A stretch of DNA of 64,000 nt from assembly GCF_005377625.1 (NCBI RefSeq), contig NZ_CP040098.1, forward strand, positions 1,240,001 through 1,304,000, given 5' to 3'. The notes beneath the pieces are model-generated. The model saw nothing but the letters and a program-made list of their open reading frames with translations, was not told the origin of the DNA and did not search any database. Source of the DNA: Desulfoglaeba alkanexedens ALDC. GTDB lineage: Bacteria > Desulfobacterota > Syntrophobacteria > Syntrophobacterales > DSM-9756. This document shows, piece by piece, positions 39,490 through 51,794 of this stretch. Position 1 is the stretch's first letter; every line of letters begins with the position of its first letter. Position numbers and translations under genes: made by a program.

Positions 39490-39732
39490 ATCCCGGCAGT
39501 CATTCGCAGGATTCGACAACGGCTGGGTTTTACCCACGAACAGTTCGCCCTGCGGGTCGGCGTCACATAAAGCACCGTGAACCATTCGGAGAACGGCAAA
39601 CGCATTCCCCTGTCCTTTCTCATCAAGCGAGTTGTTGAGATGAAAACGGAATTGGATTTCCAGGACCTGCCTGCGCCGCGAGCGTCGCGGCAGGCATTGG
39701 CGAAGGGCCCACGGAAGAAGTCGCTGAAATGA
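39490..39732 (+). pseudogene. Xre-family HTH regulator, broken by a stop codon
   Basis: The frame reads PAVIRRIRQRLGFTHEQFAL, then RVGVT-stop-STVNHSENGK, then RIPLSFLIKRVVEMKTELD. This is an Xre/Cro-type helix-turn-helix with an in-frame TAA at 39568-39570 in the recognition-helix region. The start is also lost: a good TAAGGAG site is followed by ATC at 39490 where ATG would fit. The remainder is intact and its TGA overlaps the helicase ATG by four bases, showing that it was the first gene of the operon. A sequencing error could explain one defect but hardly both. Confidence 0.7.
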
Positions 39733-42700
39733 GTAACATGCTCCTCCACGAAGGCCAGATTCTTACCGGCCCGCTCTTCAATGAGCCGATGCGGGTGGAG
39801 ACCGTGCGGGCGAACGGCCCGGACACATGGGTGGCGGGCTTGGTCGGGACGCAGTCGGAGCGGTTCCGAAAGGTCACCCTCACGACGCGTGACCTCAAGA
39901 GCCTCACGATTCAGGAGGCGCGGCCCACCTACCATGGCGACGGCCGGCTGTTGCGCCTCGGCTTGCAAGCCTATTCCCTTGGCATTGCCTACGAGTTCGA
40001 TCCGTATTTTGGCCTTTCGATTTCTCGTGTGGACCCGTTGCCGCACCAGCTCGAGGCAGTCTACGACTATCTGCTCAAGCTCGCGCGGGTTCGGTTTCTG
40101 CTCGCGGATGACGCCGGGGCCGGGAAGACGATCATGGCCGGGATCCTCATCCGCGAACTCGAACTGCGCGGTCTCGCCGAGCGCATCTTGATCGTCTGCC
40201 CCGCCAACCTCTCGTTCCAATGGCAGCGTGAACTGAAGGAAAAGTTCGACGAGAAGTTCCTCGTTCTCAAGGGCAGCAACATCCGGGACCAGTTCGGCGT
40301 CAACCAGTGGCTGGAGCAGAAGCGTGTCATCACCTCGCTCGACCTCGCCAAACGGTCGGACATCCTGCCGGGGCTTCGGCAGGTCCACTGGGACCTGGTG
40401 ATCGTCGACGAGGCGCACCGCATGTCGGCCGCCGACGAAACCCACAAGAGCCTGCGCTACAAGCTGGGCGAGCTCTTGCGGGACACGTCGGACCACATGC
40501 TCCTGCTCACGGCCACCCCACACAAGGGCGATCCGGAGAATTTCAGCCTCTTCCTTCGGCTCCTCGACGCGGATGCCTATGCGGACGTCCGGTCCATCCG
40601 CAAGGCGATGGACCGTCGCCGTGCGCCCTTCTATTTGCGCCGCACGAAGGAAGCGATGGTCTACTTCCCGCAGCCGCAACCGGATGGAACGTGGGCGGCA
40701 CAGAAAATCTTCACGAAGCGCATCGCACACACGGTGGAGTTCCAGATCGACGGGGCGGAGTTCGACCTCTACCGCGACATCACGCGCTTTGTGAAGCAGC
40801 AGAGCACCAAAGCTGCATCGCAGGGTGACGACCCGCGCGCCCGCGCCGTGGGCTTTTTGATGTCCCTCTACCAGCGGAGACTTGCCTCTAGCACCTACGC
40901 CATACGGCACTCACTCGAAAACCGGGCCAAGCGGCTGGAAGATGACTTGAAGCGTGCTCAGGACCTTGCACGGGTGGCTCCTCCGGAGCTTCCCGACCCG
41001 GATGAGTTGGACGAAATGGAGGAAAGCAAGCGCGAGCGCCTCGAGGAGCTGCTTGAGGCCGTCACGCTTGCGGGCAACGCCCAACAGGTCCAGGAGGAGA
41101 TTCAGGCACTCAGGGCGCTGGCCGGCCAGGCCCATGCGGTGGAGGATTCCGGTGCTGAGGCCAAGCTATCGAAGCTGAAGGAGCTCCTCCAGCAGGAAGG
41201 TTTCTTCGACAACCAGGAGAAACAGCTCCTCATCTTCACGGAGTTCAAGGACACGCTGGACTACCTCGTGGATCGCCTCAAATCGTGGGGCTTCCGCGTA
41301 GGCTTCATCCACGGGGGCATGAAACCGGGATCGCGCGACGATCCCGGCACCCGGCTCTATGCGGAACAGCAGTTCCGCGAAGGGGCCATTCAGGTCCTCG
41401 TAGCGACCGAGGCAGCCGGCGAGGGCATCAACCTTCAGGTCTGCAACATCCTCTTCAACTACGACATCCCGTGGAACCCGAACCGCCTTGAACAGCGCAT
41501 GGGCCGCATCCACCGCTACGGTCAGCGCAAGGACTGCCTGATCTTCAACTTCGTGGCTACGAACACCATTGAGGGCCGGGTGCTCAAGCGGCTCTTGGAA
41601 AAGCTCCAGGAGATCCGGGACGCGCTCGATGACGACGCGGTCTTCAACGTGGTCGGTGAGGTTCTCCCAGCATCCCAGGTGGAACGTATCCTGCGCGACT
41701 ACTACGCCGGACGTCTCGGCGACGCAGACCTTGAGGAACGGCTCTTGCGGAACGTGGACGAGGGCCACTTTCGCAACATCTGCCAGAACGCCCTCGAAGG
41801 TTTGGCCTCGAAGAAGCTCAACCTGGAGATGCTCATCGAGCGCCGTGCGCGGGCCCGGGAACGGCGCGTCGTGCCCGAGACCATCGCGCGGTTCATCCGG
41901 GAGGCGGCCGAGTACGTTCCGCTCACCCTCAAGACCTTTCCGCATCTTCCCCACACCTTCGATCCGGGCAGGACCCCGCCGGTGCTGCGCCGCTACGAGA
42001 GCGACCCGACCTGGAAGCTGTCGGCGCTGGCGGCCAAGTACCCCCGCTGTTCCACAGACCGGGAGACGGCCGAGAAACACAGCCTGGAATGGGTCACGCC
42101 CGGCCACCCTCTCTTCGAGGCGATCCGGAGGCACACTTACGCGCAGGCGCTCGACGTGTTCGGGAAAGGGGCGACCTTCTACTCCCTCCAGCATGATGCG
42201 CCCGCGCGAATCGACTTCTACCGCGCACGTGTCGTCGACGGCCTCGGCCAGGTGATCCACGAGCGGCTCTTTGCGGTCGAGATCTCGGCCGACGTGAAAC
42301 CGCGCCTGTGCGAACCCAACATCCTCGGGAACTTCACGCCCGCGGGCGCTCCCGATGAATCCCCGACGGTCGCTACACTTCCCGAAGCAACGGCCTGGCT
42401 CAACGAACAGGCGCTCACGCCGTTCCTAGAAGAGACGCGCAAGGATCGCCTGGCCGAGGTCGAACGGATCTCGGCGCACATCGAACTGTCGCTGACGGAG
42501 CTCCTACAGCGGGCCGACGACGAAATCGGCCGGGCGCACGAGGCCGTGGACCGCGGTGAGCAGGGTGCCGAAGGCCGTCTCACTCAGGCGGAGGCACGGC
42601 ATGACGAATTGCGCGAACGGCGCGAGCGGCGGCGCCGGGAGATCGATCAGCAGCGGGCGCTTTCCCTCCAGGGGGTGGAGCGCATCGCAAGCGTTCTCGT

Positions 42701-43160
42701 CCTGCCCCATCCCGAGCGGGAGGCCCCCGAGGTCCAGCGCCTCCAGCCCAACCCGGAGACTGAGGCTACCGCCATGCGGGTGGTGCTGGATTACGAGCGT
42801 GCCCAGGGCCGGCAGGTCTACGACGTCCACGAGAAAAACTTGGGCTACGACGTCACCAGCCTGGACCTCGACTCCGGGGAGCTACGCCTCATCGAGGTCA
42901 AAGGCCTGGTCGGTGCTACAGGCACCATCCTCCTCACCCCCAACGAACGCCGCGTGGCCGAGGACCGGCGCGACTGCTACTGGCTTTACGTCGTCACCAG
43001 CTGCGCTACCCAGCCCGAACTCCAGGAACCGATCAAGGACCCCGCCCGCTTCGACTGGCACGAGGTCACCAAGGTGGCTCACTATTACCTGTCGGTGGAT
43101 GCGCTGACCAAGCCGATGGAGGTGCGCGAAGACCTGCTGCCATACGGAGAAAAACAATGA
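39729..43160 (+). CDS. SNF2-family helicase with DUF3883 domain
   Basis: A 1143-residue superfamily 2 helicase. The SNF2 N-lobe has 'LLADDAGAGKTIMAG' (Walker A near residue 126) and 'VIVDEAHRMS' (near 226). The C-lobe has 'LVATEAAGEGINLQ' and 'RMGRIHRYGQRK' near 595. A coiled region (about 920-985) leads to a C-terminal DUF3883 domain with a restriction-endonuclease-like core 'LGYDVTSLDLDSGELRLIEVKG' (D...ExK near 1040-1060). Such proteins are typical of DNA-targeting defence systems. It overlaps the Xre remnant and the downstream ATPase gene by four bases each. Confidence 0.93.
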   Translation: MSNMLLHEGQILTGPLFNEPMRVETVRANGPDTWVAGLVGTQSERFRKVTLTTRDLKSLTIQEARPTYHGDGRLLRLGLQAYSLGIAYEFDPYFGLSISRVDPLPHQLEAVYDYLLKLARVRFLLADDAGAGKTIMAGILIRELELRGLAERILIVCPANLSFQWQRELKEKFDEKFLVLKGSNIRDQFGVNQWLEQKRVITSLDLAKRSDILPGLRQVHWDLVIVDEAHRMSAADETHKSLRYKLGELLRDTSDHMLLLTATPHKGDPENFSLFLRLLDADAYADVRSIRKAMDRRRAPFYLRRTKEAMVYFPQPQPDGTWAAQKIFTKRIAHTVEFQIDGAEFDLYRDITRFVKQQSTKAASQGDDPRARAVGFLMSLYQRRLASSTYAIRHSLENRAKRLEDDLKRAQDLARVAPPELPDPDELDEMEESKRERLEELLEAVTLAGNAQQVQEEIQALRALAGQAHAVEDSGAEAKLSKLKELLQQEGFFDNQEKQLLIFTEFKDTLDYLVDRLKSWGFRVGFIHGGMKPGSRDDPGTRLYAEQQFREGAIQVLVATEAAGEGINLQVCNILFNYDIPWNPNRLEQRMGRIHRYGQRKDCLIFNFVATNTIEGRVLKRLLEKLQEIRDALDDDAVFNVVGEVLPASQVERILRDYYAGRLGDADLEERLLRNVDEGHFRNICQNALEGLASKKLNLEMLIERRARARERRVVPETIARFIREAAEYVPLTLKTFPHLPHTFDPGRTPPVLRRYESDPTWKLSALAAKYPRCSTDRETAEKHSLEWVTPGHPLFEAIRRHTYAQALDVFGKGATFYSLQHDAPARIDFYRARVVDGLGQVIHERLFAVEISADVKPRLCEPNILGNFTPAGAPDESPTVATLPEATAWLNEQALTPFLEETRKDRLAEVERISAHIELSLTELLQRADDEIGRAHEAVDRGEQGAEGRLTQAEARHDELRERRERRRREIDQQRALSLQGVERIASVLVLPHPEREAPEVQRLQPNPETEATAMRVVLDYERAQGRQVYDVHEKNLGYDVTSLDLDSGELRLIEVKGLVGATGTILLTPNERRVAEDRRDCYWLYVVTSCATQPELQEPIKDPARFDWHEVTKVAHYYLSVDALTKPMEVREDLLPYGEKQ

Positions 43161-44290
43161 AGATTCAAAAGCTCACGCTAAGGAATTGGAAGAACTTCAC
43201 CGAGGCTGACGTCGAGATCCACGATCGGCTGTTTCTGGTCGGACCGAATGCCTCGGGCAAGTCCAATTTCCTCGATGCGTTCCGTTTCCTGCGCGATCTG
43301 GCGTCTACCGGCGGCGGATTTCAGGTGGCTGTTGAGCGCCGCGGCGGGGTGACAGCGTTGCGCTGCTTGGCTGCGCGACGCAACTCGAACATCACGCTAG
43401 GCGTTGTCGTCCGCAACGGCGCAGAAGAGTGGGAATACGAGCTTTCATTCAACCAGGACAAGCAGCGCCGTGCAGCCGTGCGTTCGGAACGGGTGCGCCG
43501 GGGCGACGACATCCTCCTGAGTAGACCGACCGACGAAGATGAGAAAGACCCCGCGCGGCTTACGCAGACTTATCTGGAGCAGGTCAACGTCAATCAGCCG
43601 TTCCGCGCCCTTGCGACCTTTTTCGCCTCGATCCGGTACCTGCACATTGTACCGCAGCTCGTGCGCGAGCCGGATCGCTCCGTGGGACGCGCCAATGATC
43701 CGTTCGGGGGCGATTTTCTGGAGCAGGTGGCGAAAATTCCAGAGAAGACCAGGAATAAACGCTTGCAGCAGATTCAAGAAGCGCTGCGCGTGGCCGTGCC
43801 GCAGCTTGAGAAGATCGAGCTCTATCGGGATCAACGCGGCACCCCGCACCTGCGAGGCAAATATCAACACTGGCGGCCGCAAGGTGCCTGGCAGACCGAG
43901 GAACAGTTTTCCGACGGGACGCTGCGCCTGATGGGACTTCTTTGGGTCGCCCTCGAAAGCGGCGGGCCGCTGCTGCTGGAAGAACCGGAACTATCGCTTC
44001 ATCCGGAAGTGGTGCGTTTTCTGCCGCAGATGTTCGCGCGCGTCCAGCGGCGCACCAAGCGGCAGATCTTTTTGAGCACCCATTCGCCAGCACTCCTTTG
44101 CGACGAAGGGATCGGCCTCGACGAAGTCCTGCTGCTAAGCCCCACGCCGGAGGGCACCAAGGTTTCTGTGGCCGGCAGTCACCAGGAAATCCGCGACCTC
44201 CTCGAAGGCGGTCTTACGCTTGCGGAGGCGGTGATCCCGCTCACCAAGCCCGAGCGCGCGTCGCAACTCACGTCGTTCGGGGAAGCGTAA
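43157..44290 (+). CDS. AAA ATPase of the RecF/OLD-like type
   Basis: A 377-residue ABC-like AAA ATPase. It starts 'MKIQKLTLRNWKNFTEADVEI'. Walker A GPNASGKSN is near residue 29-37, Walker B 'LLLEEPELSLHPE' near 274, with the following 'FLSTHSPALL' switch His. No nuclease domain is fused; the next gene supplies a TOPRIM-like protein. Paired OLD-like ATPase and TOPRIM genes occur in abortive-infection systems such as PARIS-type pairs. It overlaps the helicase stop by four bases. Confidence 0.88.
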   Translation: MKIQKLTLRNWKNFTEADVEIHDRLFLVGPNASGKSNFLDAFRFLRDLASTGGGFQVAVERRGGVTALRCLAARRNSNITLGVVVRNGAEEWEYELSFNQDKQRRAAVRSERVRRGDDILLSRPTDEDEKDPARLTQTYLEQVNVNQPFRALATFFASIRYLHIVPQLVREPDRSVGRANDPFGGDFLEQVAKIPEKTRNKRLQQIQEALRVAVPQLEKIELYRDQRGTPHLRGKYQHWRPQGAWQTEEQFSDGTLRLMGLLWVALESGGPLLLEEPELSLHPEVVRFLPQMFARVQRRTKRQIFLSTHSPALLCDEGIGLDEVLLLSPTPEGTKVSVAGSHQEIRDLLEGGLTLAEAVIPLTKPERASQLTSFGEA

Positions 44291-44291
44291 G

Positions 44292-44891
44292 GTGAGCGTC
44301 GTCATCAACGCGGCAGTCGAGGGACCGACGGACGAAGCTGTCGCCATGCGTCTGATCTGCCACGTCGGGGCCAAAGTCGGTACCGTATACGGCAAGAACG
44401 GCAAACCCCACCTCCGGAAAAGGCTCAACGCTTACAGCCAGGCCGCGCGACACAGTTCGTGGCTTGTTCTGGTGGATCTCGATCGCGACGCAAACTGTGC
44501 GCCGCCACTGAAAACTGCGTGGCTACCCAATCCCCCGCCGCGGTTGTGTTTTCGTATCGCGGTTCGTGCCGTCGAGTCGTGGCTGCTCGCCGACGCGCAG
44601 CGGATCGCCGAATTCATGGCTGTGGCACGAAATCGAGTGCCTGCGAATCCGGAGGGCTTGCCTGATCCGAAGGTCGAGTTGGTGAGCCTGGCGCGTCGCT
44701 CGCGCCGAAAGGATATCCGACAGGACATGGTGCCGCGCGAATCCAGCGGTCGGGCGGTCGGTCCCGCCTACACCTCGCGATTGATCGAATTTGCCGGCCG
44801 GCACTGGCGACCTGACGAAGCGGCCAGGCGCGCCGACAGCCTCGCTCGCGCCATACGATGCCTGCGCAGGCTTGTGGAGGAAAGAGCATGA
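44292..44891 (+). CDS. TOPRIM-like (DUF4276-type) partner protein
   Basis: A 199-residue protein with the TOPRIM acidic signature: Glu10 in '[15 protein letters not shown]' and Asp62/Asp64 in '[11 protein letters not shown]'. This matches the metal-binding E...DxD layout of OLD-like nucleases and DUF4276 proteins. GTG start one base after the ATPase stop, with GGGGAAG upstream. The pair is probably an ATPase-regulated nuclease or effector. Its stop overlaps the methylase start by four bases (ATGA), so it is embedded in the operon. Confidence 0.8.
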
Positions 44892-47800
44892 TCCCCAAAG
44901 ACTGCAGGCGTCTGGCCGAGGTGGACTTCCCGATTGCCGAGGTGTCAAAGCACGCGGCGCGGGAGAAGTCCATTCGCCACGGCCATCCGAGCACCTTGCA
45001 CCTGTGGTGGGCGCGGCGGCCGCTGGCTTCTAGCCGGGCCGTGTTGCTGGCGCTTCTGTTGCCGGATCCGTGCGATCCGGTTTGCCCAGAGGGCTTCAAG
45101 ATGAAGGCCCGGGAACTGCTACCCACAGTCCCGGGCAGGGTCGGCCCCACGGATGATGACCTGCGCAAGGCATTGCTGAGGTTCATTGCGGACTTCGCCA
45201 ACTGGGACCTGGCATCCCATCGCGCCTATCTTGGCGTCAGCCGGGCGCTGGTCAGGGCTGCGCATGGCGAGGAGCCGCCGCTGGTCGTGGACCCGTTTGC
45301 CGGCGGTGGATCGATCCCGCTCGAGGCGCTGCGACTGGGCTGTGAGGCGTTCGCCAGCGACTTGAACCCCGTTGCGTGCCTCATCCTCAAGGTCATGCTC
45401 GAAGACATTCCTCGGCACGGGCGGGAGCTGGCAGAGGAGTTGCGGCGCGTCGGGGCGGAGATCAAGCGCCAGGCCGAGAAGGAACTGGCCGAGTTCTACC
45501 CGCCCGACCCCGATGGGGCCCGGCCCATCGCCTACCTCTGGGCGCGCACCGTGCGCTGCGAGGCGCCCAACTGCGGGGCGGAGATTCCGCTTATGCGCTC
45601 GTTGTGGCTTTGCAAGAAGGCCAATCGAAAACGAGCGCTACGGTACAAGGTGGTGAAGCCAAGATTGACAGGCTTCCAGCCTGTCAATCCCTGGAAAAAC
45701 CCTGAACTGGGGATTCAATCCCGACACCTTCCGCACCTGCAAACTCCGGATGCCACATACTTCGTGACCTTCCGTTGTGCGAAGGGGGTGGAGCTACCGG
45801 AAGCGGCCCGCGACCTTGTCCTGTCCTCGGTAATCCACTGGCATGGCGAGAGAATCGATTTGGATGCCGCTGTAGTCATGCCGGATCACGTACACATGAT
45901 CTTCAGGTTGATGCTTGATTCCGACAGGCAAGATACCTCTCCTTCATTAAGCAAGGTATTACATAGTATCAAAAGCTTCTCGGCCAATGAGGTCAACAAA
46001 CTGCTCAAGCGGAAAGGCTCGTTGTGGCAGGACGAGAGTTTCGACCACATCATTCGGAACGGGGAGGAGTGGGCTGAAAAGATAGAGTACATTCGGCAGA
46101 ATGCGGTGAAGAAAGGTCTGGTAGAAAGGCCGGAAGCATACAAATGGCTTTGGGCAAGAAGTGACAGGCAGGATGCCTGTCCCACTGTCCAGTTCGAGGT
46201 TTTCGAGCCGAAGAGCGAGAAGGAAGTTCCGAACGGCACGGTCGCGCGGGCCAAGGCGACCTGCCTTTGCTGCGGGGCGGTCCTGCCGCCGGAGCGGGTG
46301 CGCGCACAGCTCGCGGCGCAGCGCGGCGGTGCGGATGTGATTTTTCACCACAGAGACACCGAGAACACAGAGAAAAGCCAGAAAAAACACTCTGTATGCT
46401 CTGTGTCTCCGTGGTGCAGAACCGGTGGTGCGCGACTGCTTGCGGTGGTGACGCTGAAGCCCGGCCAAACCGGCAGGCACTACCGCCTGCCGACGGAGCG
46501 GGATTATCAGGCCGTCTGGAAGGCCCAGGAGCGCCTCAAGGCGATCCTCGACGAATGGGAACGCAGCGGTAGGAAGGGCCTTTGCCCAGTGCCGGATGAG
46601 CCGCTTCCGCCGATTGGCACTCTTGGCTTTCGCGTTCAGCGCTACGGCATGCTCCAGTGGGGCGACCTTTTCACGGCGCGGCAGAAGGTGGCGCTGCTTG
46701 ACCTGGGCTCGCGCCTGAGGAGTGCACCATCGAGCGTTGGCGAAACGGGTGCCGCTGCGCTCTCGCGGCTGGCGGACAAGAACGCATCGCTCGCCGTTTG
46801 GAATCAGATCGGCGAGAAGATTGAACACGTCTTCGGCCGGCAAGCGTTGCCGATAGTGTGGGACTTCGCAGAGGTCTCGATATTTTCCGACTCGACCGGA
46901 AACTTTCTGAGCGGCTTGGATCTGGTCGCGAAGGTTGTCGACGCCTGGCCCCCTTCACACGCTGGGCAGGTTCAGTCCGCCGACGCGACTGCGCATCTAC
47001 TCCCCGACGAAACAACCCACGTCTGGTTCACCGACCCGCCCTACTACGACGCGGTCCCCTATGCGGACCTCTCGGACTTCTTCTTCGTCTGGCTCAAGCG
47101 CGCATTGCCGGGTCATCCACTGCTGCGCGATCCTTTCGATCCGACGAACTCGCTGACGCCCAAGAATCGTGAAGCCGTGCAGGACGAGACCAAATGTGAC
47201 AATGGCCGCGCGAAGGACCGTGCCTGGTTCGAGAAGACGATGGCCAAGGCCTTCGCCGAGGGCCGCCGCGTCCTGCGGAAGGATGGCATTGGCTCGGTGG
47301 TCTTCGCCCACAAGACCACCGAAGGGTGGGAGGCGCTCCTCTACGGCATGATCCGCGGGGGCTGGACCATCACCGGTTCTTGGCCCATCGCCACGGAAAG
47401 ACCGGGTCGACTGCGCTCTCAGGATTCCGCCGCGCTCGCCACCAGCGTCCATCTCGTCTGCCGCCCGCGGCCTGAGGATGCGCCGGTCGGCGACTGGGCC
47501 CACGTGCTGCGCGAGCTCCCGAAGCGCGTCGGCGATTGGATGGAGCGGCTCCAGGAGGAAGGCATTCGAGGCGCGGACTTGGTCTTTGCCTGCATCGGCC
47601 CCGCCTTGGAGATCTTTAGCCGGTACAGCAGGGTGGAGACCCCCGATGGCCGAGAAATCAGGCTGGCCGAGTACTTGGAGAAGGTGTGGGAGGTTGTGGG
47701 CCGCACCGCGCTGGAGCAGGTGCTTGGCAGTAGGTCAGGCTTCCAGCCTGACATGACAGGCAAGATACCTGTCCCACTCCAGGGAGGCTTGGAAGAAGAC

Positions 47801-48496
47801 GCGCGATTGACGGCTCTGTTCCTCTGGACGCTCCAAAGCACCAATGGGGAATCTGCGGGAGCAGACCCCCACGAAACCGACGAGGATGATCTCCCCGCCG
47901 AGGATGAAGACGAACAGCAGATCGCCTCCGGAAAGGCAAAGGGCTATTCGCTCGTCTTCGACGTGGTGCGCCGCTTCGCCCAGCCCCTGGGCATCAACCT
48001 TCCGAAGTGGGAAGGCAGGATTATCGAGATAAAGAAGGGGGTCGTGCGCCTGCTGCCCATCACCGAACGCGCGCTGATCCTCTTTGGCAAGGACGGGGCC
48101 GAGGCCGTGGCCCACCGGCTGGAGAAGGCCCCTGTCACAGGATTCCACCAGCTGAGGCTCTTCCCGGAGGATGCTGCGGCAAAGGGCAAGGGGCGCAGGA
48201 ACAGACGTAGAAAGGCTGACGTGAACGTGACGAACCTGCCTGCCGCGTCCCGGGACGCGGCGCAGGCACGCGAGGCCTTGGAGATCAGCCGCGAAGCCAC
48301 GACGCTTGACCGGGTCCACATGGCGATGCTGCTTCAGGCCGGCGGTCGAGCGAGCGCCCTGCGGGCTCTCCTGAAGGCTGAACAGGAGCGCGGGCATGAT
48401 TTCCTCCGTCTGGCCAACGCGCTCTCCGCCCTGTACCCGAAGGGAAGCGAAGAGAAGCGGCTGCTTGACGCGATGTTGCTCGCGGTGCCAAGATGA
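44888..48496 (+). CDS. DUF1156 adenine-specific DNA methylase, carrying in-frame insertions
   Basis: A 1202-residue protein. The methylase core has the SAM-binding motif '[14 protein letters not shown]' (near residue 135), 'FASDLNPVA', and the catalytic DPPY motif ('[17 protein letters not shown]') near residue 715. A zinc ribbon is made of 'RCEAPNCG' and 'CLCCG'. Three segments look inserted without frame loss: a RAYT transposase domain at 45659-46189, between the two zinc-ribbon halves; a palindromic element at 46346-46416; and a REP doublet at 47734-47773. Without them the protein would be near 980 residues, closer to what I expect of the family. Whether it still methylates DNA is unknown. 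GGAGGAAAG precedes the ATG; it overlaps both neighbours. Confidence 0.88.
45662..45688 (+). repeat. REP hairpin at left end of RAYT insertion
   Basis: Perfect 11-bp arms GATTGACAGGC and GCCTGTCAATC around TTCCA. Translated in frame as LTGFQPVN. Confidence 0.9.
45923..45941 (+). repeat. REP remnant within the RAYT coding part
   Basis: GACAGGCAAGATACCTCTC differs at one base from the REP unit at 47755-47773 (GACAGGCAAGATACCTGTC). It reads in frame as DRQDTS. Confidence 0.75.
46163..46181 (+). repeat. REP hairpin at right end of RAYT insertion
   Basis: GACAGGC-AGGAT-GCCTGTC, perfect 7-bp arms, read in frame as DRQDACP. Confidence 0.9.
46346..46416 (+). mobile_element. 71-bp palindromic element in the methylase frame
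   Basis: Long imperfect inverted repeat: CACCACAGAGACACCGAGAA at the left matches the reverse complement of the right arm (CACCACGGAGACACAGAGCA). It reads in frame as [11 protein letters not shown]...SVCSVSPW. The flanking protein 'GGADV' and '[11 protein letters not shown]' would join directly without it. Confidence 0.8.
47734..47773 (+). repeat. REP doublet in the methylase frame
   Basis: GTCAGGC-TTCCA-GCCTGAC (47734-47752), then GACAGGCAAGATACCTGTC (47755-47773), two adjacent hairpins of the same family as those flanking the RAYT. Translated in frame as [14 protein letters not shown]. Confidence 0.85.
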
Positions 48497-48777
48497 TTGC
48501 AGAACCGCTCAGGGATTACGTGTTCACGCCCCATGCGCGCTTCGAAATAGAGCGACGTGGGTTGGGCGAGGAGCTTGTCCGCGGCGTGCTGGAAGCACCG
48601 GGGCAGCGGTGGGACTTGCAGCCCGGAAGACATGTGTTGCAGTCAAAAATCTCGATGGGTGAACCGCCCCGGGTCTACGTACTCCGGGTGATCGTTGATG
48701 TGGACAAGCAGCCGAATGAGGTGGTTACAGCGTACCGAAGCAGTAAAATAGACAAATACTGGAGGAACGAGCCATGA
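48493..48777 (+). CDS. DUF4258 protein
   Basis: A 94-residue protein typical of DUF4258: '[25 protein letters not shown]' with the conserved His-Ala-x-x-x-Ile/Arg-Arg motif and a basic C-terminal strand '[14 protein letters not shown]'. DUF4258 has a RelE-like fold in many predictions and is often paired with DUF2283, as here. It overlaps the methylase stop and the DUF2283 start by four bases each. A toxin or nucleic-acid-binding role is possible but not shown. Confidence 0.85.
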
Positions 48778-48974: not shown

Positions 48975-48995
48975 AGCGACTATAGGATGACCGTT

Positions 48996-51794
48996 ATGGA
49001 CCCCTGGTACAAAGTTGCCACGCCACGAAAAGAGGTCCGGGAAGGACGGTCCTTCAACCCGGACGAATTCGCCATCGCCCTCGAACAGGTCGTGGCGAAG
49101 ACGGCTCCCGAGGACTACCGTGACCCGAAGCAGTTCTTTGCGCGCACCTGCTTCACGAGGGCACTGCGGGAGCACGCCGGCATGGTGCTTCGAAGGCTCT
49201 CGGGGAAGACCGACAACACCGCTCCGGTCCTGACCCTGATCACCCAGTTCGGCGGCGGTAAGACGCACACGCTGACCACCCTCTACCACCTCGCCACGAG
49301 CGGCGAACAGGCGGCCGGCTACCCGGGGATCTCCGACCTCTTGCGCAACGCCGGCATCTCGTCGGTTCCGAAGGTGCGGGTGGGCGTGTTTGTAGGGAAC
49401 GCGTGGGATCCTCAGGACGGCCGGGAGACCCCGTGGATTGACATCGCCCGCCAGCTCGCAGGCGACAAGGGCGTCGAAGCGCTGGGGACCGCCGCGAAGA
49501 CGACCCCACCGGGGACAGAGTCTATCGGGCGCGTCTTTCAGGCGGCGAACGCGCCCGTGCTCCTTCTTTTCGATGAAGTCCTCAACTTCCTCAACCGGCA
49601 TCGCGGCATGGCCGAGTCGTTCCATGCCTTCATCCAGAACCTCACGGTCGCCACCACGGGAACGACGCACGCCGTGGCGGTGATCAGCCTTCCGCGCAGC
49701 CAGGTCGAGATGACCGGCTGGGACATGCAGTGGCAGGACAAGATCACCAAGGTCGTCCGGCGCGTCGCCAAGGACCTCATCGCCAACGACGAGTCGGAGA
49801 TCAGCGAAGTTGTCCGGCGGAGGCTCTTCGAGGACCTGGGGAGTGAGCGCACCAGAAAGAACGTGGCCAAAGCCTTTGCGGACTGGTGCTTCGAACGGAG
49901 GGCGCAACTGCCGCCGGAATGGACGGCCGTGGACACGGCGGCGACGGAGGCGAAGGCGAGAGAGTTCCTCTTGCGGCGATTCGAGGCCTGCTACCCCTTC
50001 CATCCGGCCACCCTCTCCGTATTCCAACGCAAGTGGCAGGCGCTGTCGCAGTACCAGCAGACGCGCGGCACACTGGCGATGCTGGCCCAATGGATTGTTT
50101 GGGCCTATCGGGACGGATTTACCTCCGCCCGGCGCGAGCCGCTAATCACCCTTGGGTCTGCCCCCCTTCACGATATGGGGTTCCGCAGCACGATCCTCGG
50201 CCAACTGGGGGAGTCCCGACTCGTTGCGGCCATCGACGCGGACATCGCTGGCGAACAAGCCCACGCGAAGGCGCTGGACGCCGACACGAAAGGGCCGCTT
50301 CGCGACATCCATCGTCGTGTAGGAACGGCGATCCTCTTTGAGTCCTCCGGCGGACAGACAGACAAGGTTGCGCACCTCCCGGAGCTTCGCTTCGCCCTCG
50401 GCGAGCCGGAGGTGGACACGACCTCGGTGGATAACGCCGCGTTTGCCCTGGAGGACAAGTCCTACTTCATTCGCAAGGTGGGCTCCGATGGGTTCAAGAT
50501 CGGCCACCAGCCTACGCTGAGGAAGGTAGTCAACGACCGGCGGGCGTCACTGGACGAAGAGTCCGAGATCAAGCCCGCCATTCGCAAGCTCGTCGAGGAT
50601 GAATTCCGCCGAGGAGCCAGTATTCCCGTTTTGCCGTTTCCCAACGACGGCGCGGAAGTCCCGGACACGCCAAGGTTGACGCTCGTGATCACCGCGCCGG
50701 AGGCCGAGTGGACCGGCGGCGGCTCGTTGCGGAGCCAGATCGCGGAATGGACCAGGCAGCGCGGCAAGTCCCCGCGCCTCTACCCGGGATCGCTCGTGTG
50801 GTGCATCAAGAAGCCGGGCCGGGACCTGCGCGAGAAGGTGGAGCTGTGGCTCGCCTGGGAGCGAGTCGACCGTGAAGTGACGGACGGAACGCTGGGAGGC
50901 GATTTCGACCGGACGGATCGCACCGATCTGCATTCGAAGGTCAAGGCCGCAAAGGAGGCCGCCAAGGACGAGGTCTGGGGCGGCTATCGGTTCGCGGTGA
51001 TCGCCGACCACCAGGAGGCCGACGGCCTCAAGACCATCGACCTCGGAGCCGGTCACTCCTCAAGCGGCGAGACCTTGTGCGGCAGGGTCATCGCTGCACT
51101 CAAATCAGAGGCGCTGCTCAACGAGTCCGTCGGCGCCGGCTACATTGACCGGAACTGGCCGCCGGCGCTGAAGGAATCGGGGGCGTGGCCGCTCACAAGC
51201 CTGCGGCAAAGTTTCCTGAACGGCTCGTTGACGCGGCTGCTCGATCCCGACACCACCCTGCGGGGGAAGATCGTCGAGTTCGTCGGAAAGGGCGATTTCG
51301 GACTCGCCTCGGGCCAGAAGGCAGATGGAACCTACGAACGGGTCTGGTTCCAGGAACCGGTCAGCGCGGATGAGGTGGCCTTCGAATCCGGCGTCTTCCT
51401 GCTGACGAAGGCCAAGGCGCAGGCTCTCAAGGCCGGTGTCCATGCGCCTCCCCCCGGACCAAAATCGCAAGCGGGCCAACCGTTGCCAAGTCCGGGGTAC
51501 GGTCCCCAAACCAGCCCTGGCCCAGGACCAGGCTACGAAACCGAGCCCAGCCCGAGTCCCCTGTCGGGCACGGAGCAGAAGACCATCCGGCTGGTCGGTA
51601 CCGTGCCGCCCGAACTGTGGAATCGGCTGGGGACGAAACTCCTGCCGAAGCTCCGCTCGGGCTCCGACCTCAAGGTCGGTGTCGATTTCTCCGTGACAGT
51701 CAACCGCGATGTGGCGACAAGCCTGACGTCGGACCTACGTCAGATCCTTGATGACCTGGGTATCAAGGGCCAAGTACAGATCCGCGACGCCTGA
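48996..51794 (+). CDS. DUF499 family ATPase
   Basis: A 932-residue ATPase. The Walker A is 'TQFGGGKTHTLTTLYHL' (near residue 88) and the Walker B 'VLLLFDEVLNFLNRHRG' is near 185. The C-terminal third is poorly conserved, has a proline-rich linker ('SPGYGPQTSPGPGPG') and ends in a domain around 'TIRLVGTVPPELWNRLG'. DUF499 ATPases accompany DUF1156 methylases and SNF2 helicases in defence loci. ATG 48996 has AGGATGA eight bases upstream; an ATG three codons earlier lacks spacing for its own site. It is the last gene of the operon. Confidence 0.88.
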   Translation: MDPWYKVATPRKEVREGRSFNPDEFAIALEQVVAKTAPEDYRDPKQFFARTCFTRALREHAGMVLRRLSGKTDNTAPVLTLITQFGGGKTHTLTTLYHLATSGEQAAGYPGISDLLRNAGISSVPKVRVGVFVGNAWDPQDGRETPWIDIARQLAGDKGVEALGTAAKTTPPGTESIGRVFQAANAPVLLLFDEVLNFLNRHRGMAESFHAFIQNLTVATTGTTHAVAVISLPRSQVEMTGWDMQWQDKITKVVRRVAKDLIANDESEISEVVRRRLFEDLGSERTRKNVAKAFADWCFERRAQLPPEWTAVDTAATEAKAREFLLRRFEACYPFHPATLSVFQRKWQALSQYQQTRGTLAMLAQWIVWAYRDGFTSARREPLITLGSAPLHDMGFRSTILGQLGESRLVAAIDADIAGEQAHAKALDADTKGPLRDIHRRVGTAILFESSGGQTDKVAHLPELRFALGEPEVDTTSVDNAAFALEDKSYFIRKVGSDGFKIGHQPTLRKVVNDRRASLDEESEIKPAIRKLVEDEFRRGASIPVLPFPNDGAEVPDTPRLTLVITAPEAEWTGGGSLRSQIAEWTRQRGKSPRLYPGSLVWCIKKPGRDLREKVELWLAWERVDREVTDGTLGGDFDRTDRTDLHSKVKAAKEAAKDEVWGGYRFAVIADHQEADGLKTIDLGAGHSSSGETLCGRVIAALKSEALLNESVGAGYIDRNWPPALKESGAWPLTSLRQSFLNGSLTRLLDPDTTLRGKIVEFVGKGDFGLASGQKADGTYERVWFQEPVSADEVAFESGVFLLTKAKAQALKAGVHAPPPGPKSQAGQPLPSPGYGPQTSPGPGPGYETEPSPSPLSGTEQKTIRLVGTVPPELWNRLGTKLLPKLRSGSDLKVGVDFSVTVNRDVATSLTSDLRQILDDLGIKGQVQIRDA

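What the first reader, a model, noticed from the sequence alone, without database searches (positions are those of the whole stretch)
44888..48496. A complete RAYT transposase domain sits in frame inside a DNA methylase
Between the two cysteine pairs of the DUF1156 zinc ribbon (RCEAPNCG and CLCCG) about 177 codons encode an HUH-type RAYT domain with DHVHM and the YIRQN tyrosine segment. REP hairpins flank it and all frames are open. A housekeeping-type transposase domain as an internal part of a defence methylase is, as far as I know, not described. It could be a harmless insertion, a protein-level intein-like fusion, or a new activity such as nicking guided by REP hairpins.
Basis: partly seen in the sequence, partly recalled or inferred. 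Interest (0 to 1): 0.9.

Follow-up and report, generated by a model that had tools for sequence, protein, structure and literature searches.

The report
Transposase domains embedded inside bacterial proteins
A small transposase gene with its hairpin repeats sits, without breaking the reading frame, inside a bacterial antivirus DNA methylase, and other bacteria carry the same kind of passenger inside other proteins, including essential ones such as alanyl-tRNA synthetase.

Summary
A catalytically complete RAYT (HUH/Tyr) domain, bounded by REP hairpins, lies in frame inside the HmaB (DUF1156) methylase at 44888-48496; two homologues (66-67% identical) show the empty site. It recurs: RAYT domains sit in frame inside AlaS, ValS, LeuS, RecG, PriA, MetH, CarB, PurH, HypF, PglX and others (22 of 50 scanned ORFs match one host model in two or more stretches). 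With a family HMM in 59 Verrucomicrobiota genomes, 8 of 87 matches are internal domains. All 60 domains in long frames that I compared keep both His and the Tyr; 108 of 120 flanks carry hairpins (9 expected). In AlaS, RAYT and host diverge together (r=0.80), with pN 0.09 against pS 0.71 in the closest pair. In three genomes the ValS-embedded RAYT is the only RAYT-family match flanked on both sides by a dispersed REP. In the window's genome these REPs were found only inside hmaB, so the decorated gene was probably imported. The same HmaB loop carries other nucleases (DUF559, another Y1) in homologues. No splicing family was found. Best reading: a REPtron inserted in frame and translated as an internal domain. 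My searches found no published description.

The parts
44888..48496 (+). hmaB: DUF1156 DNA methylase (BREX-related/Hma system) carrying the embedded RAYT
   Evidence: aligned to RAYT-free homologues L007 and L008
45713..46156 (+). embedded RAYT (HUH, Y1) domain; DHVH and YIRQN intact; no own stop codon
   Evidence: NF047646 94.3 bits; motifs; AF2 model best match 4er8
45663..45689 (.). upstream REP hairpin A (12-bp stem), encodes TGFQPV-type linker
46163..46185 (.). downstream REP hairpin B with CCAC foot, encodes DRQDACPT linker
45923..45942 (.). degenerate REP B inside the RAYT coding region
47730..47777 (.). second in-frame insertion: GTAG-REP A-REP B-CCAC pair (REPIN-like)
   Evidence: not in L007/L008
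46344..46420 (.). third in-frame insertion: unrelated palindrome encoding HHRDTENTE...CSVSPW
39729..43160 (+). hmaA-like SNF2 helicase with C-terminal NOV_C domain
48987..51794 (+). hmaC-like DUF499 ATPase

Best explanation
A RAYT gene with its flanking REP hairpins (a REPtron) inserted in frame into a loop of hmaB, in another genome where this REP family was active. The decorated defence gene later reached the present chromosome by horizontal transfer. The RAYT has no stop of its own, so it must be translated as an internal domain of the methylase, joined by REP-encoded linkers, with no splicing. This is one case of a recurrent, protein-resident mode of life of RAYTs. They enter tolerant loops of long conserved proteins, are expressed with the host, cannot be lost without harming the host, stay catalytically intact under selection, and can act on dispersed cognate REPs in trans. 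Shown by sequence: in-frame insertion, empty sites, REP bounds, recurrence, co-inheritance and purifying selection in AlaS. Inferred: one uncut chain in vivo, ssDNA insertion chemistry, enzymatic activity in the embedded state, action in trans, and the transfer.
For: Empty sites in L007/L008 with conserved flanks. RAYT family, residues and fold. REP bounds: hairpins 55/60 upstream, 53/60 downstream, 50/60 both; in 6 of 11 linker pairs printed I read by eye a GTGG...CCAC-bounded unit (L014, L021, L028, L011, L035, L165). Recurrence: 22 of 50 ORFs scanned with NCBIfam match one host model in 2 or more stretches; 8 of 87 family matches internal in 59 genomes. HUH and Tyr in 60/60. AlaS site 1: RAYT-host identity r=0.80, 0 of 8064 permutations as high; closest pair RAYT pN .09/pS .71. 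In G202, G203 and G204 only the ValS-embedded RAYT has the footed REP at both sides; the pattern occurs 30, 25 and 58 times there, reversed control 0. In G000 the REPs and the second palindrome were found only in hmaB.
Against: For the window's own copy there is one sequence, so selection on it cannot be measured; its left REP lacks the GT[AG]G foot, and the usual NP after the Tyr motif is NA. G202-G204 hold other RAYT-family matches, and in G202 only 12 of the 30 REP copies are identical to the ValS flank (counted by eye), so trans activity is inference. Low pN could partly reflect selection for folding. Picking rows by HMM may favour intact copies. 28 of 50 scanned ORFs did not show two stretches of one host model, and the tables give the place of the best stretch only.
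Confidence: 0.75

Rival explanations
1. Nuclease slot: the loop in HmaB is a selected docking place where the defence methylase acquires a nuclease (RAYT, another Y1, DUF559) that takes part in restriction.
For: By my hand count 7 of 20 HmaB loci at about 50% identity or more that cover the site carry a nuclease there: RAYT in the window, DUF559 in 5, Y1_Tnp in 1. Embedded DUF559 domains are 72-84% identical to each other with pN .08-.18, pS .63-.93 (10 pairs). More distant DUF1156 proteins L088, L090 and L091 carry RAYTs at the same place, by eye (L091's frame ends soon after).
Against: The same kind of RAYT passenger sits in AlaS, LeuS, CarB, PurH and others with no evident need for a nuclease. 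The inserts keep palindromic flanks, and HmaB also carries plain palindromes. PMC12839542 (section 29 read) reports a nuclease fused to the helicase in 79% of type-1 systems, and the window helicase has a NOV_C domain.
Confidence: 0.12
2. Neutral relic: a chance in-frame insertion tolerated in a loop, with no function and on its way to decay.
For: No cognate REPs found elsewhere in the genome; left foot not recognisable; hmaB also carries two other harmless-looking insertions.
Against: The catalytic residues checked are intact in the window. In embedded groups elsewhere pN is far below pS, often at saturated synonymous distance. A clade of 11 RAYTs (8 AlaS, 2 RecG, 1 PriA) has no free member in the tree.
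Confidence: 0.1
3. Intein-like element that is spliced out after translation.
For: In-frame insertion in conserved proteins, some sites re-used, nuclease content.
Against: No intein/Hint family listed in Pfam or NCBIfam scans; junctions are REP-encoded linkers; the HUH fold fills the insert.
Confidence: 0.01
4. Assembly chimera or spurious open frame.
For: The named other cases are MAGs; 5 long frames were judged spurious by eye (L172, L175, L185, L200, L279).
Against: Window genome is one contig. Same-site insertions co-diverge with the host in several genomes. Host models matched in two or more stretches in 22 ORFs.
Confidence: 0.02

Closest known systems
REPtron / RAYT (TnpA_REP) with REPs (PMC2817692 seen as search listing; PMC6006769 section 13 and passages; PDB 4er8)
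   Same: HUH/Tyr enzyme, REP hairpins on both sides, GT[AG]G/C[TC]AC feet in several copies, fold
   Different: No own stop: translated as an internal domain of a host protein. [quoted passage not shown]
REP- and RPE-decorated proteins (PMC3733652, sections 15 and 16 read)
   Same: Palindromes inside ORFs, including DNA repair genes and tRNA synthetases; most intragenic GTAG repeats in O. terrae, a verrucomicrobium
   Different: Those inserts are the small repeats, encoding mostly 20-30 and up to 82 aa; here the whole transposase is inside the protein
Inteins with homing endonucleases (recalled; PMC1635734 and PMC5874633 seen as search listing)
   Same: Nuclease-bearing in-frame insertion in conserved, often essential proteins; some sites re-used
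   Different: No splicing family; HUH transposase instead of Hint plus homing endonuclease; linkers are palindromes
Hma / BREX-related DUF499 systems (PMC8565338 passages; PMC12839542 section 29 and passages)
   Same: Gene set helicase, DUF1156 methylase, DUF499 ATPase
   Different: In the main text of PMC12839542 'transposase', 'DUF559', 'GIY-YIG' and 'HUH' do not occur; I saw no mention of nuclease inserts in the methylase loop in what I read

Membership tests
RAYT (REP-associated tyrosine transposase) | family HMM over curated cut-off | tested here: met
   NF047646 94.3 bits against 80
RAYT (REP-associated tyrosine transposase) | HUH motif and catalytic Tyr | tested here: met
   DHVH and Y intact in the window; 60/60 rows in long frames
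RAYT (REP-associated tyrosine transposase) | fold of REP-bound RAYT | tested here: met
   4er8 best in Foldseek (E 1.1e-7) and VIA-align (Z 14.3, rmsd 3.1, 141 aligned)
RAYT (REP-associated tyrosine transposase) | flanked by REP hairpins | tested here: met
RAYT (REP-associated tyrosine transposase) | GT[AG]G foot at both outer ends | tested here: inconclusive
   right end CCAC present, left end not adjacent
RAYT (REP-associated tyrosine transposase) | cognate REPs dispersed in the same genome (usual, not strictly required) | tested here: not met
   in G000 found only inside hmaB; dispersed in G202-G204 with ValS-embedded RAYTs
RAYT (REP-associated tyrosine transposase) | cleaves REP ssDNA | not testable with these tools
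   needs the purified domain
HmaB / DUF1156 methylase | family match and operon with hmaA, hmaC | tested here: met
   PADLOC HmaB 4.7e-110, HmaA 3.5e-176, HmaC 1.6e-97
HmaB / DUF1156 methylase | NCBIfam equivalog NF042963, cut-off 1000 bits | tested here: not met
   202 bits: related branch, not that equivalog
Intein | Hint/splicing domain | tested here: not met
   none for the window; none listed for other hosts

The most novel reading that the evidence does not exclude
Protein-resident RAYTs are a distinct kind of mobile element: non-splicing, palindrome-bounded transposases that live as internal domains of essential or long proteins, use the host's expression and essentiality to persist, move REPs in trans while embedded, and have lineages with only an embedded life (AlaS/RecG/PriA clade). 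The same niche is used by palindrome-flanked DUF559 and by GIY-YIG nucleases, so in-frame 'domain squatting' by nucleases is a general strategy beside inteins.
Probability: 0.45. Interest if true: 0.93.

Novelty: new variant of a known kind. Interest (0 to 1): 0.85.

Why it matters
RAYTs are usually regarded as free-standing, mostly single-copy and perhaps domesticated genes (recalled). If they also live inside alanyl-tRNA synthetase, RecG or a defence methylase, and are held intact there by selection, then a mobile enzyme can persist by becoming part of a protein without splicing. That makes the open question of how REP/RAYT systems persist directly testable: one can ask whether an essential enzyme is at the same time a REP transposase. 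It also suggests that surveys which discard 'too long' transposases miss a class, and it offers natural examples of large domain insertions tolerated by essential enzymes.

Tried and rejected
Intein/splicing: rejected, no such family listed. 'Only RAYT in the genome': suggested for G198, rejected by the family HMM, which finds further RAYT-like matches; the trans argument now rests on flanking REPs in G202-G204. REP pattern results that do not help: G199, G207, G208 0; G201 1; G206 1 with 1 in the control; in G205 (17 copies) the RdgB-embedded RAYT is not flanked by the pattern; the G198 list was cut off (34 copies, 7 shown). Full-length HmaB model: mean pLDDT 45, not used. Alignments A1 and A2 misplaced the RAYT-free homologues and were replaced by A3 and A4.

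Long frames not counted as real: L172, L175, L185, L200 and L279 (flanks look like antisense or low-complexity sequence, by eye); L196 (two TGA). Of the 50 ORFs scanned for hosts, besides the 22 with two or more stretches: one-sided only L089, L090, L088, L091, L092, L183, L178, L193, L190, L201, L176, L186 (12); C-terminal fusions L164, L280 and N-terminal L194 (3); weak L093, L198, L281 (3); no host family at the E-value used L010, L166, L171, L174, L184, L195, L197, L202, L203, L173 (10). Bias: searches used embedded RAYTs as queries, so their counts (31 of 60 and 17 of 78 rows in frames of 480 aa or more, spurious ones included) overstate the share; one search uses a family HMM, but its 59 genomes include the centre G198, already known (without it 7 of 84).

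Rows dropped before the tree and the residue counts: L172, L175, L185, L200, duplicate short loci, distant tblastn hits L040-L067, L002-L006, L037, L038, L077, L196. The 60 'embedded' rows include 2 terminal fusions (L164, L194) and hosts without a name. One upstream hairpin (L159) is a C/G run. One search left out 5 of 64 free loci for short flanks and used every fifth permutation. The HmaB N-part comparison failed for 7 of 10 pairs (motif not found). The tree does not unite the RAYTs of AlaS site 2, LeuS, RecG or the DUF1156 loop. VIA-align lists Thg1 (Z up to 9.8) and viral Rep (6.9) lower down, read as a shared ferredoxin-like fold only.
Full report
WHAT IS THERE. The ORF at 44888-48496 (+) is uninterrupted (1202 aa). 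Its ends are a DUF1156 DNA methylase of the Hma system (PADLOC HmaB E 4.7e-110), in a gene set with an SNF2 helicase (HmaA, 3.5e-176) and a DUF499 ATPase (HmaC, 1.6e-97); a HEC-01A/B pair sits between hmaA and hmaB. Its middle is a RAYT: NCBIfam NF047646, 94.3 bits against a cut-off of 80 when the segment is scanned alone. The His residues of DHVH and the Tyr of YIRQN are intact. An AlphaFold model of the segment (mean pLDDT 81.7, most of the core over 90, N-terminal linker under 50) has the REP-bound RAYT 4er8 as best match in Foldseek (E 1.1e-7) and in VIA-align (Z 14.3, rmsd 3.1, 141 aligned).

IT IS AN INSERTION. HmaB proteins of a Desulfatibacillum MAG (L007) and a Binatia MAG (L008) align with the window (66-67% identity, tblastn best segment; 70-75% over aligned columns) and lack the segment. 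The window reads ...RYKVVKP[insert]VQFEVFEPK..., L007 ...RYRIVRAKNDVPRVEFEVFEPK..., L008 ...RYRVVRPAEGPQRVELEVFEPE...; 184 residues stand where they have 15. Hairpins bound the insert: GATTGACAGGC-TTCCA-GCCTGTCAATC upstream and GACAGGC-AGGAT-GCCTGTC-CCAC downstream. hmaB holds two further in-frame palindromic inserts that L007 and L008 lack at those places: a GTAG-REP-REP-CCAC pair (47730-47777) and an unrelated palindrome (46344-46420). L007 carries an HHRDTENTE-type insert at another place in its hmaB.

IT PROBABLY CAME FROM ELSEWHERE. In the whole 3.37-Mb genome (one contig) the REP pattern has true copies only at the four REPs inside hmaB (four other matches are unrelated strings). The footed REP occurs once, at the RAYT's right end, and the second palindrome only in hmaB. 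With these patterns there is no sign that the REP family spread in this genome. The simplest inference is that the decorated defence gene was imported; Hma systems are said to be patchy and horizontally spread (PMC8565338, passages). The genome has five other, strong RAYT matches (195-207 bits) in short frames.

IT IS RECURRENT. Of 31 RAYT-matching loci translated, 9 lay inside long ORFs. In a sample of the window's phylum, 7 of 23 matches in 198 genomes lie in frames of 480 aa or more. With embedded RAYTs as queries the figures are 31 of 60 in 288 genomes of the phylum of a Verrucomicrobia MAG and 17 of 78 in 294 of the phylum of a Phycisphaerales MAG, spurious frames included. With the family HMM in 59 genomes of the first phylum, 10 of 87 matches lie in such frames. 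Of these, 8 are internal domains (5 by a host model in two or more stretches: AlaS, PglX, HypF, PriA twice; 3 by eye: CCA nucleotidyltransferase and two B12-radical-SAM-type proteins), 1 is a C-terminal fusion (MenE) and 1 spurious. NCBIfam scans of 50 long ORFs found one host model matched in two or more stretches in 22: ValS (L011, L035, L169), AlaS (L014, L156, L160, L189), LeuS (L165, L180), RecG (L155), PriA (L282, L284), MetH (L161), CarB (L179), PurH (L199), HypF (L283), IspG (L167), NspC (L163), RdgB (L036), HsdR (L168), PglX (L170), salicylyl-CoA hydroxylase/oxidoreductase (L187). In AlaS one site falls, by alignment to human AlaRS 4xem, between the helix ending near residue 420 and IPGDTAWLLYDTYGFP.

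THE UNIT IS A REPTRON. Within 150 nt, 55 of 60 RAYTs in long frames have a hairpin upstream, 53 of 60 downstream and 50 of 60 on both sides; 108 of 120 sides against 9.0 expected from shuffles. Of 11 linker pairs printed, I read by eye a unit with a GTGG left end and a CCAC right end in 6 (L014, L021, L028, L011, L035, L165), and not in the other 5, the window among them. Free copies are similar (43 of 59 with hairpins on both sides), but only 13 of 59 have a frame that stays open through a downstream hairpin, and 8 of 59 through both. Reading through is thus not a general property of RAYT genes.

IT IS KEPT INTACT WHILE EMBEDDED. Both His, the Tyr, the Asn four places on, a Lys and a Trp are present in 60 of 60 rows; free rows keep the HUH and Tyr in 63 of 64. 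In the AlaS site-1 group (8 rows) RAYT identity follows host identity (r 0.80; 0 of 8064 permutations as high). For L014/L021, RAYT identity is 0.85 and host identity 0.84 (N side) and 0.80 (C side), with RAYT pN 0.09 against pS 0.71. Same-host RAYTs form supported clades for MetH, PglX, a DUF1156 branch, 5 of 6 type IIG-like methylases and a B12-radical-SAM-type protein called HemN in my labels; 8 AlaS, 2 RecG and 1 PriA RAYTs form one clade (96) with no free member. AlaS site 2, LeuS, RecG and the DUF1156 loop are not united; the free label needs 12 changes, 3 of them forced by starred branches (FastTree, local support only). In LeuS the hosts are 0.81 (N) and 0.77 (C) identical but the RAYTs 0.47 (L165/L180), which suggests repeated entry at one place.

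IT MAY WORK IN TRANS. In G202, G203 and G204 the footed REP pattern occurs 30, 25 and 58 times (reversed control 0); by eye 12, 22 and 55 of these are identical to the REPs beside the ValS-embedded RAYT, its own included. Of the RAYT-family matches there, only the ValS-embedded one has such REPs at both sides (positions compared by eye). Other RAYT-like matches exist in these genomes, so this is inference.

THE SAME LOOP RECEIVES OTHER NUCLEASES. I counted by hand, HmaB loci at about 50% identity or more that cover the loop. Seven carry a nuclease there: the RAYT (window), DUF559 (L235, L237, L239, L240, L242), another Y1_Tnp (L238) (families; L239 by the PF04480 hit). L241 has only a palindrome and a frame break; L239 has a TGA upstream of the insert. 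GIY-YIG domains lie in frame at other sites in L236 and L248. The DUF559 inserts have their own palindrome-like PSPSGRG/PTPLPGGEG flanks (by eye) and are 72-84% identical to each other with pN .08-.18, pS .63-.93. In 148 genomes of the phylum, 51 DUF559 matches include four in frames over 390 aa, two of them HmaB. More distant DUF1156 proteins L088, L090 and L091 carry RAYTs at the same place by eye (L091's frame ends soon after), L089 at another.

LITERATURE. PMC3733652 (sections 15 and 16 read) describes REPs inside ORFs, including tRNA synthetases, and no RAYT inside a protein in those sections. PMC6006769 (section 13 read, passages) describes REPs in frame inside tnpA_REP genes and says that unexpectedly long proteins were set aside as fusions or annotation errors. 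PMC12839542 (section 29 read, passages) treats Hma as a BREX-related system with a nuclease usually fused to the helicase. Searches listed no paper that by title, abstract start or the passages I opened treats RAYTs as internal protein domains; the library lacks most subscription papers and all preprints.

CONCLUSION. The finding is right and larger than stated: an in-frame REPtron in a defence methylase, one of many protein-resident RAYTs. What is not shown is protein-level: that the chain is made whole and that the embedded enzyme acts.

Noticed in passing
43157-44891: A HEC-01A/HEC-01B pair (AAA ATPase and partner) lies between hmaA and hmaB, a candidate defence pair nested in the Hma operon.
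   Followed up: no
46344-46420: A palindrome encoding HHRDTENTE...CSVSPW is inserted in frame in hmaB, was found nowhere else in the genome, and a like one sits at another place in L007's hmaB.
   Followed up: partly
L235, L237, L239, L240, L242: DUF559 nuclease domains with palindrome-like PSPSGRG/PTPLPGGEG flanks are in frame in the same HmaB loop and similar to each other.
   Followed up: partly
L236, L248: GIY-YIG nuclease domains are in frame inside HmaB/DUF1156 proteins at other sites.
   Followed up: no
L237:640-930: An extra stretch of about 84 aa inside HmaB has no Pfam match.
   Followed up: no
L239 (G020:C9): An in-frame TGA stands where the second Cys codon of CESPNC is expected in HmaB; mutation, error or recoding not told apart.
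   Followed up: no
L281 and L173, L182, L184: A B12-binding radical-SAM-type protein carries similar RAYTs at two different sites in different genomes, and HypF (L283) carries a like one, by eye: possible movement between host proteins.
   Followed up: partly
L008:7470-8790: The Binatia hmaB is broken by an IS3-like insertion (transposase-like ORF), seen by eye.
   Followed up: no
48493-48777: A small DUF4258-like ORF overlaps the end of hmaB by four bases.
   Followed up: no
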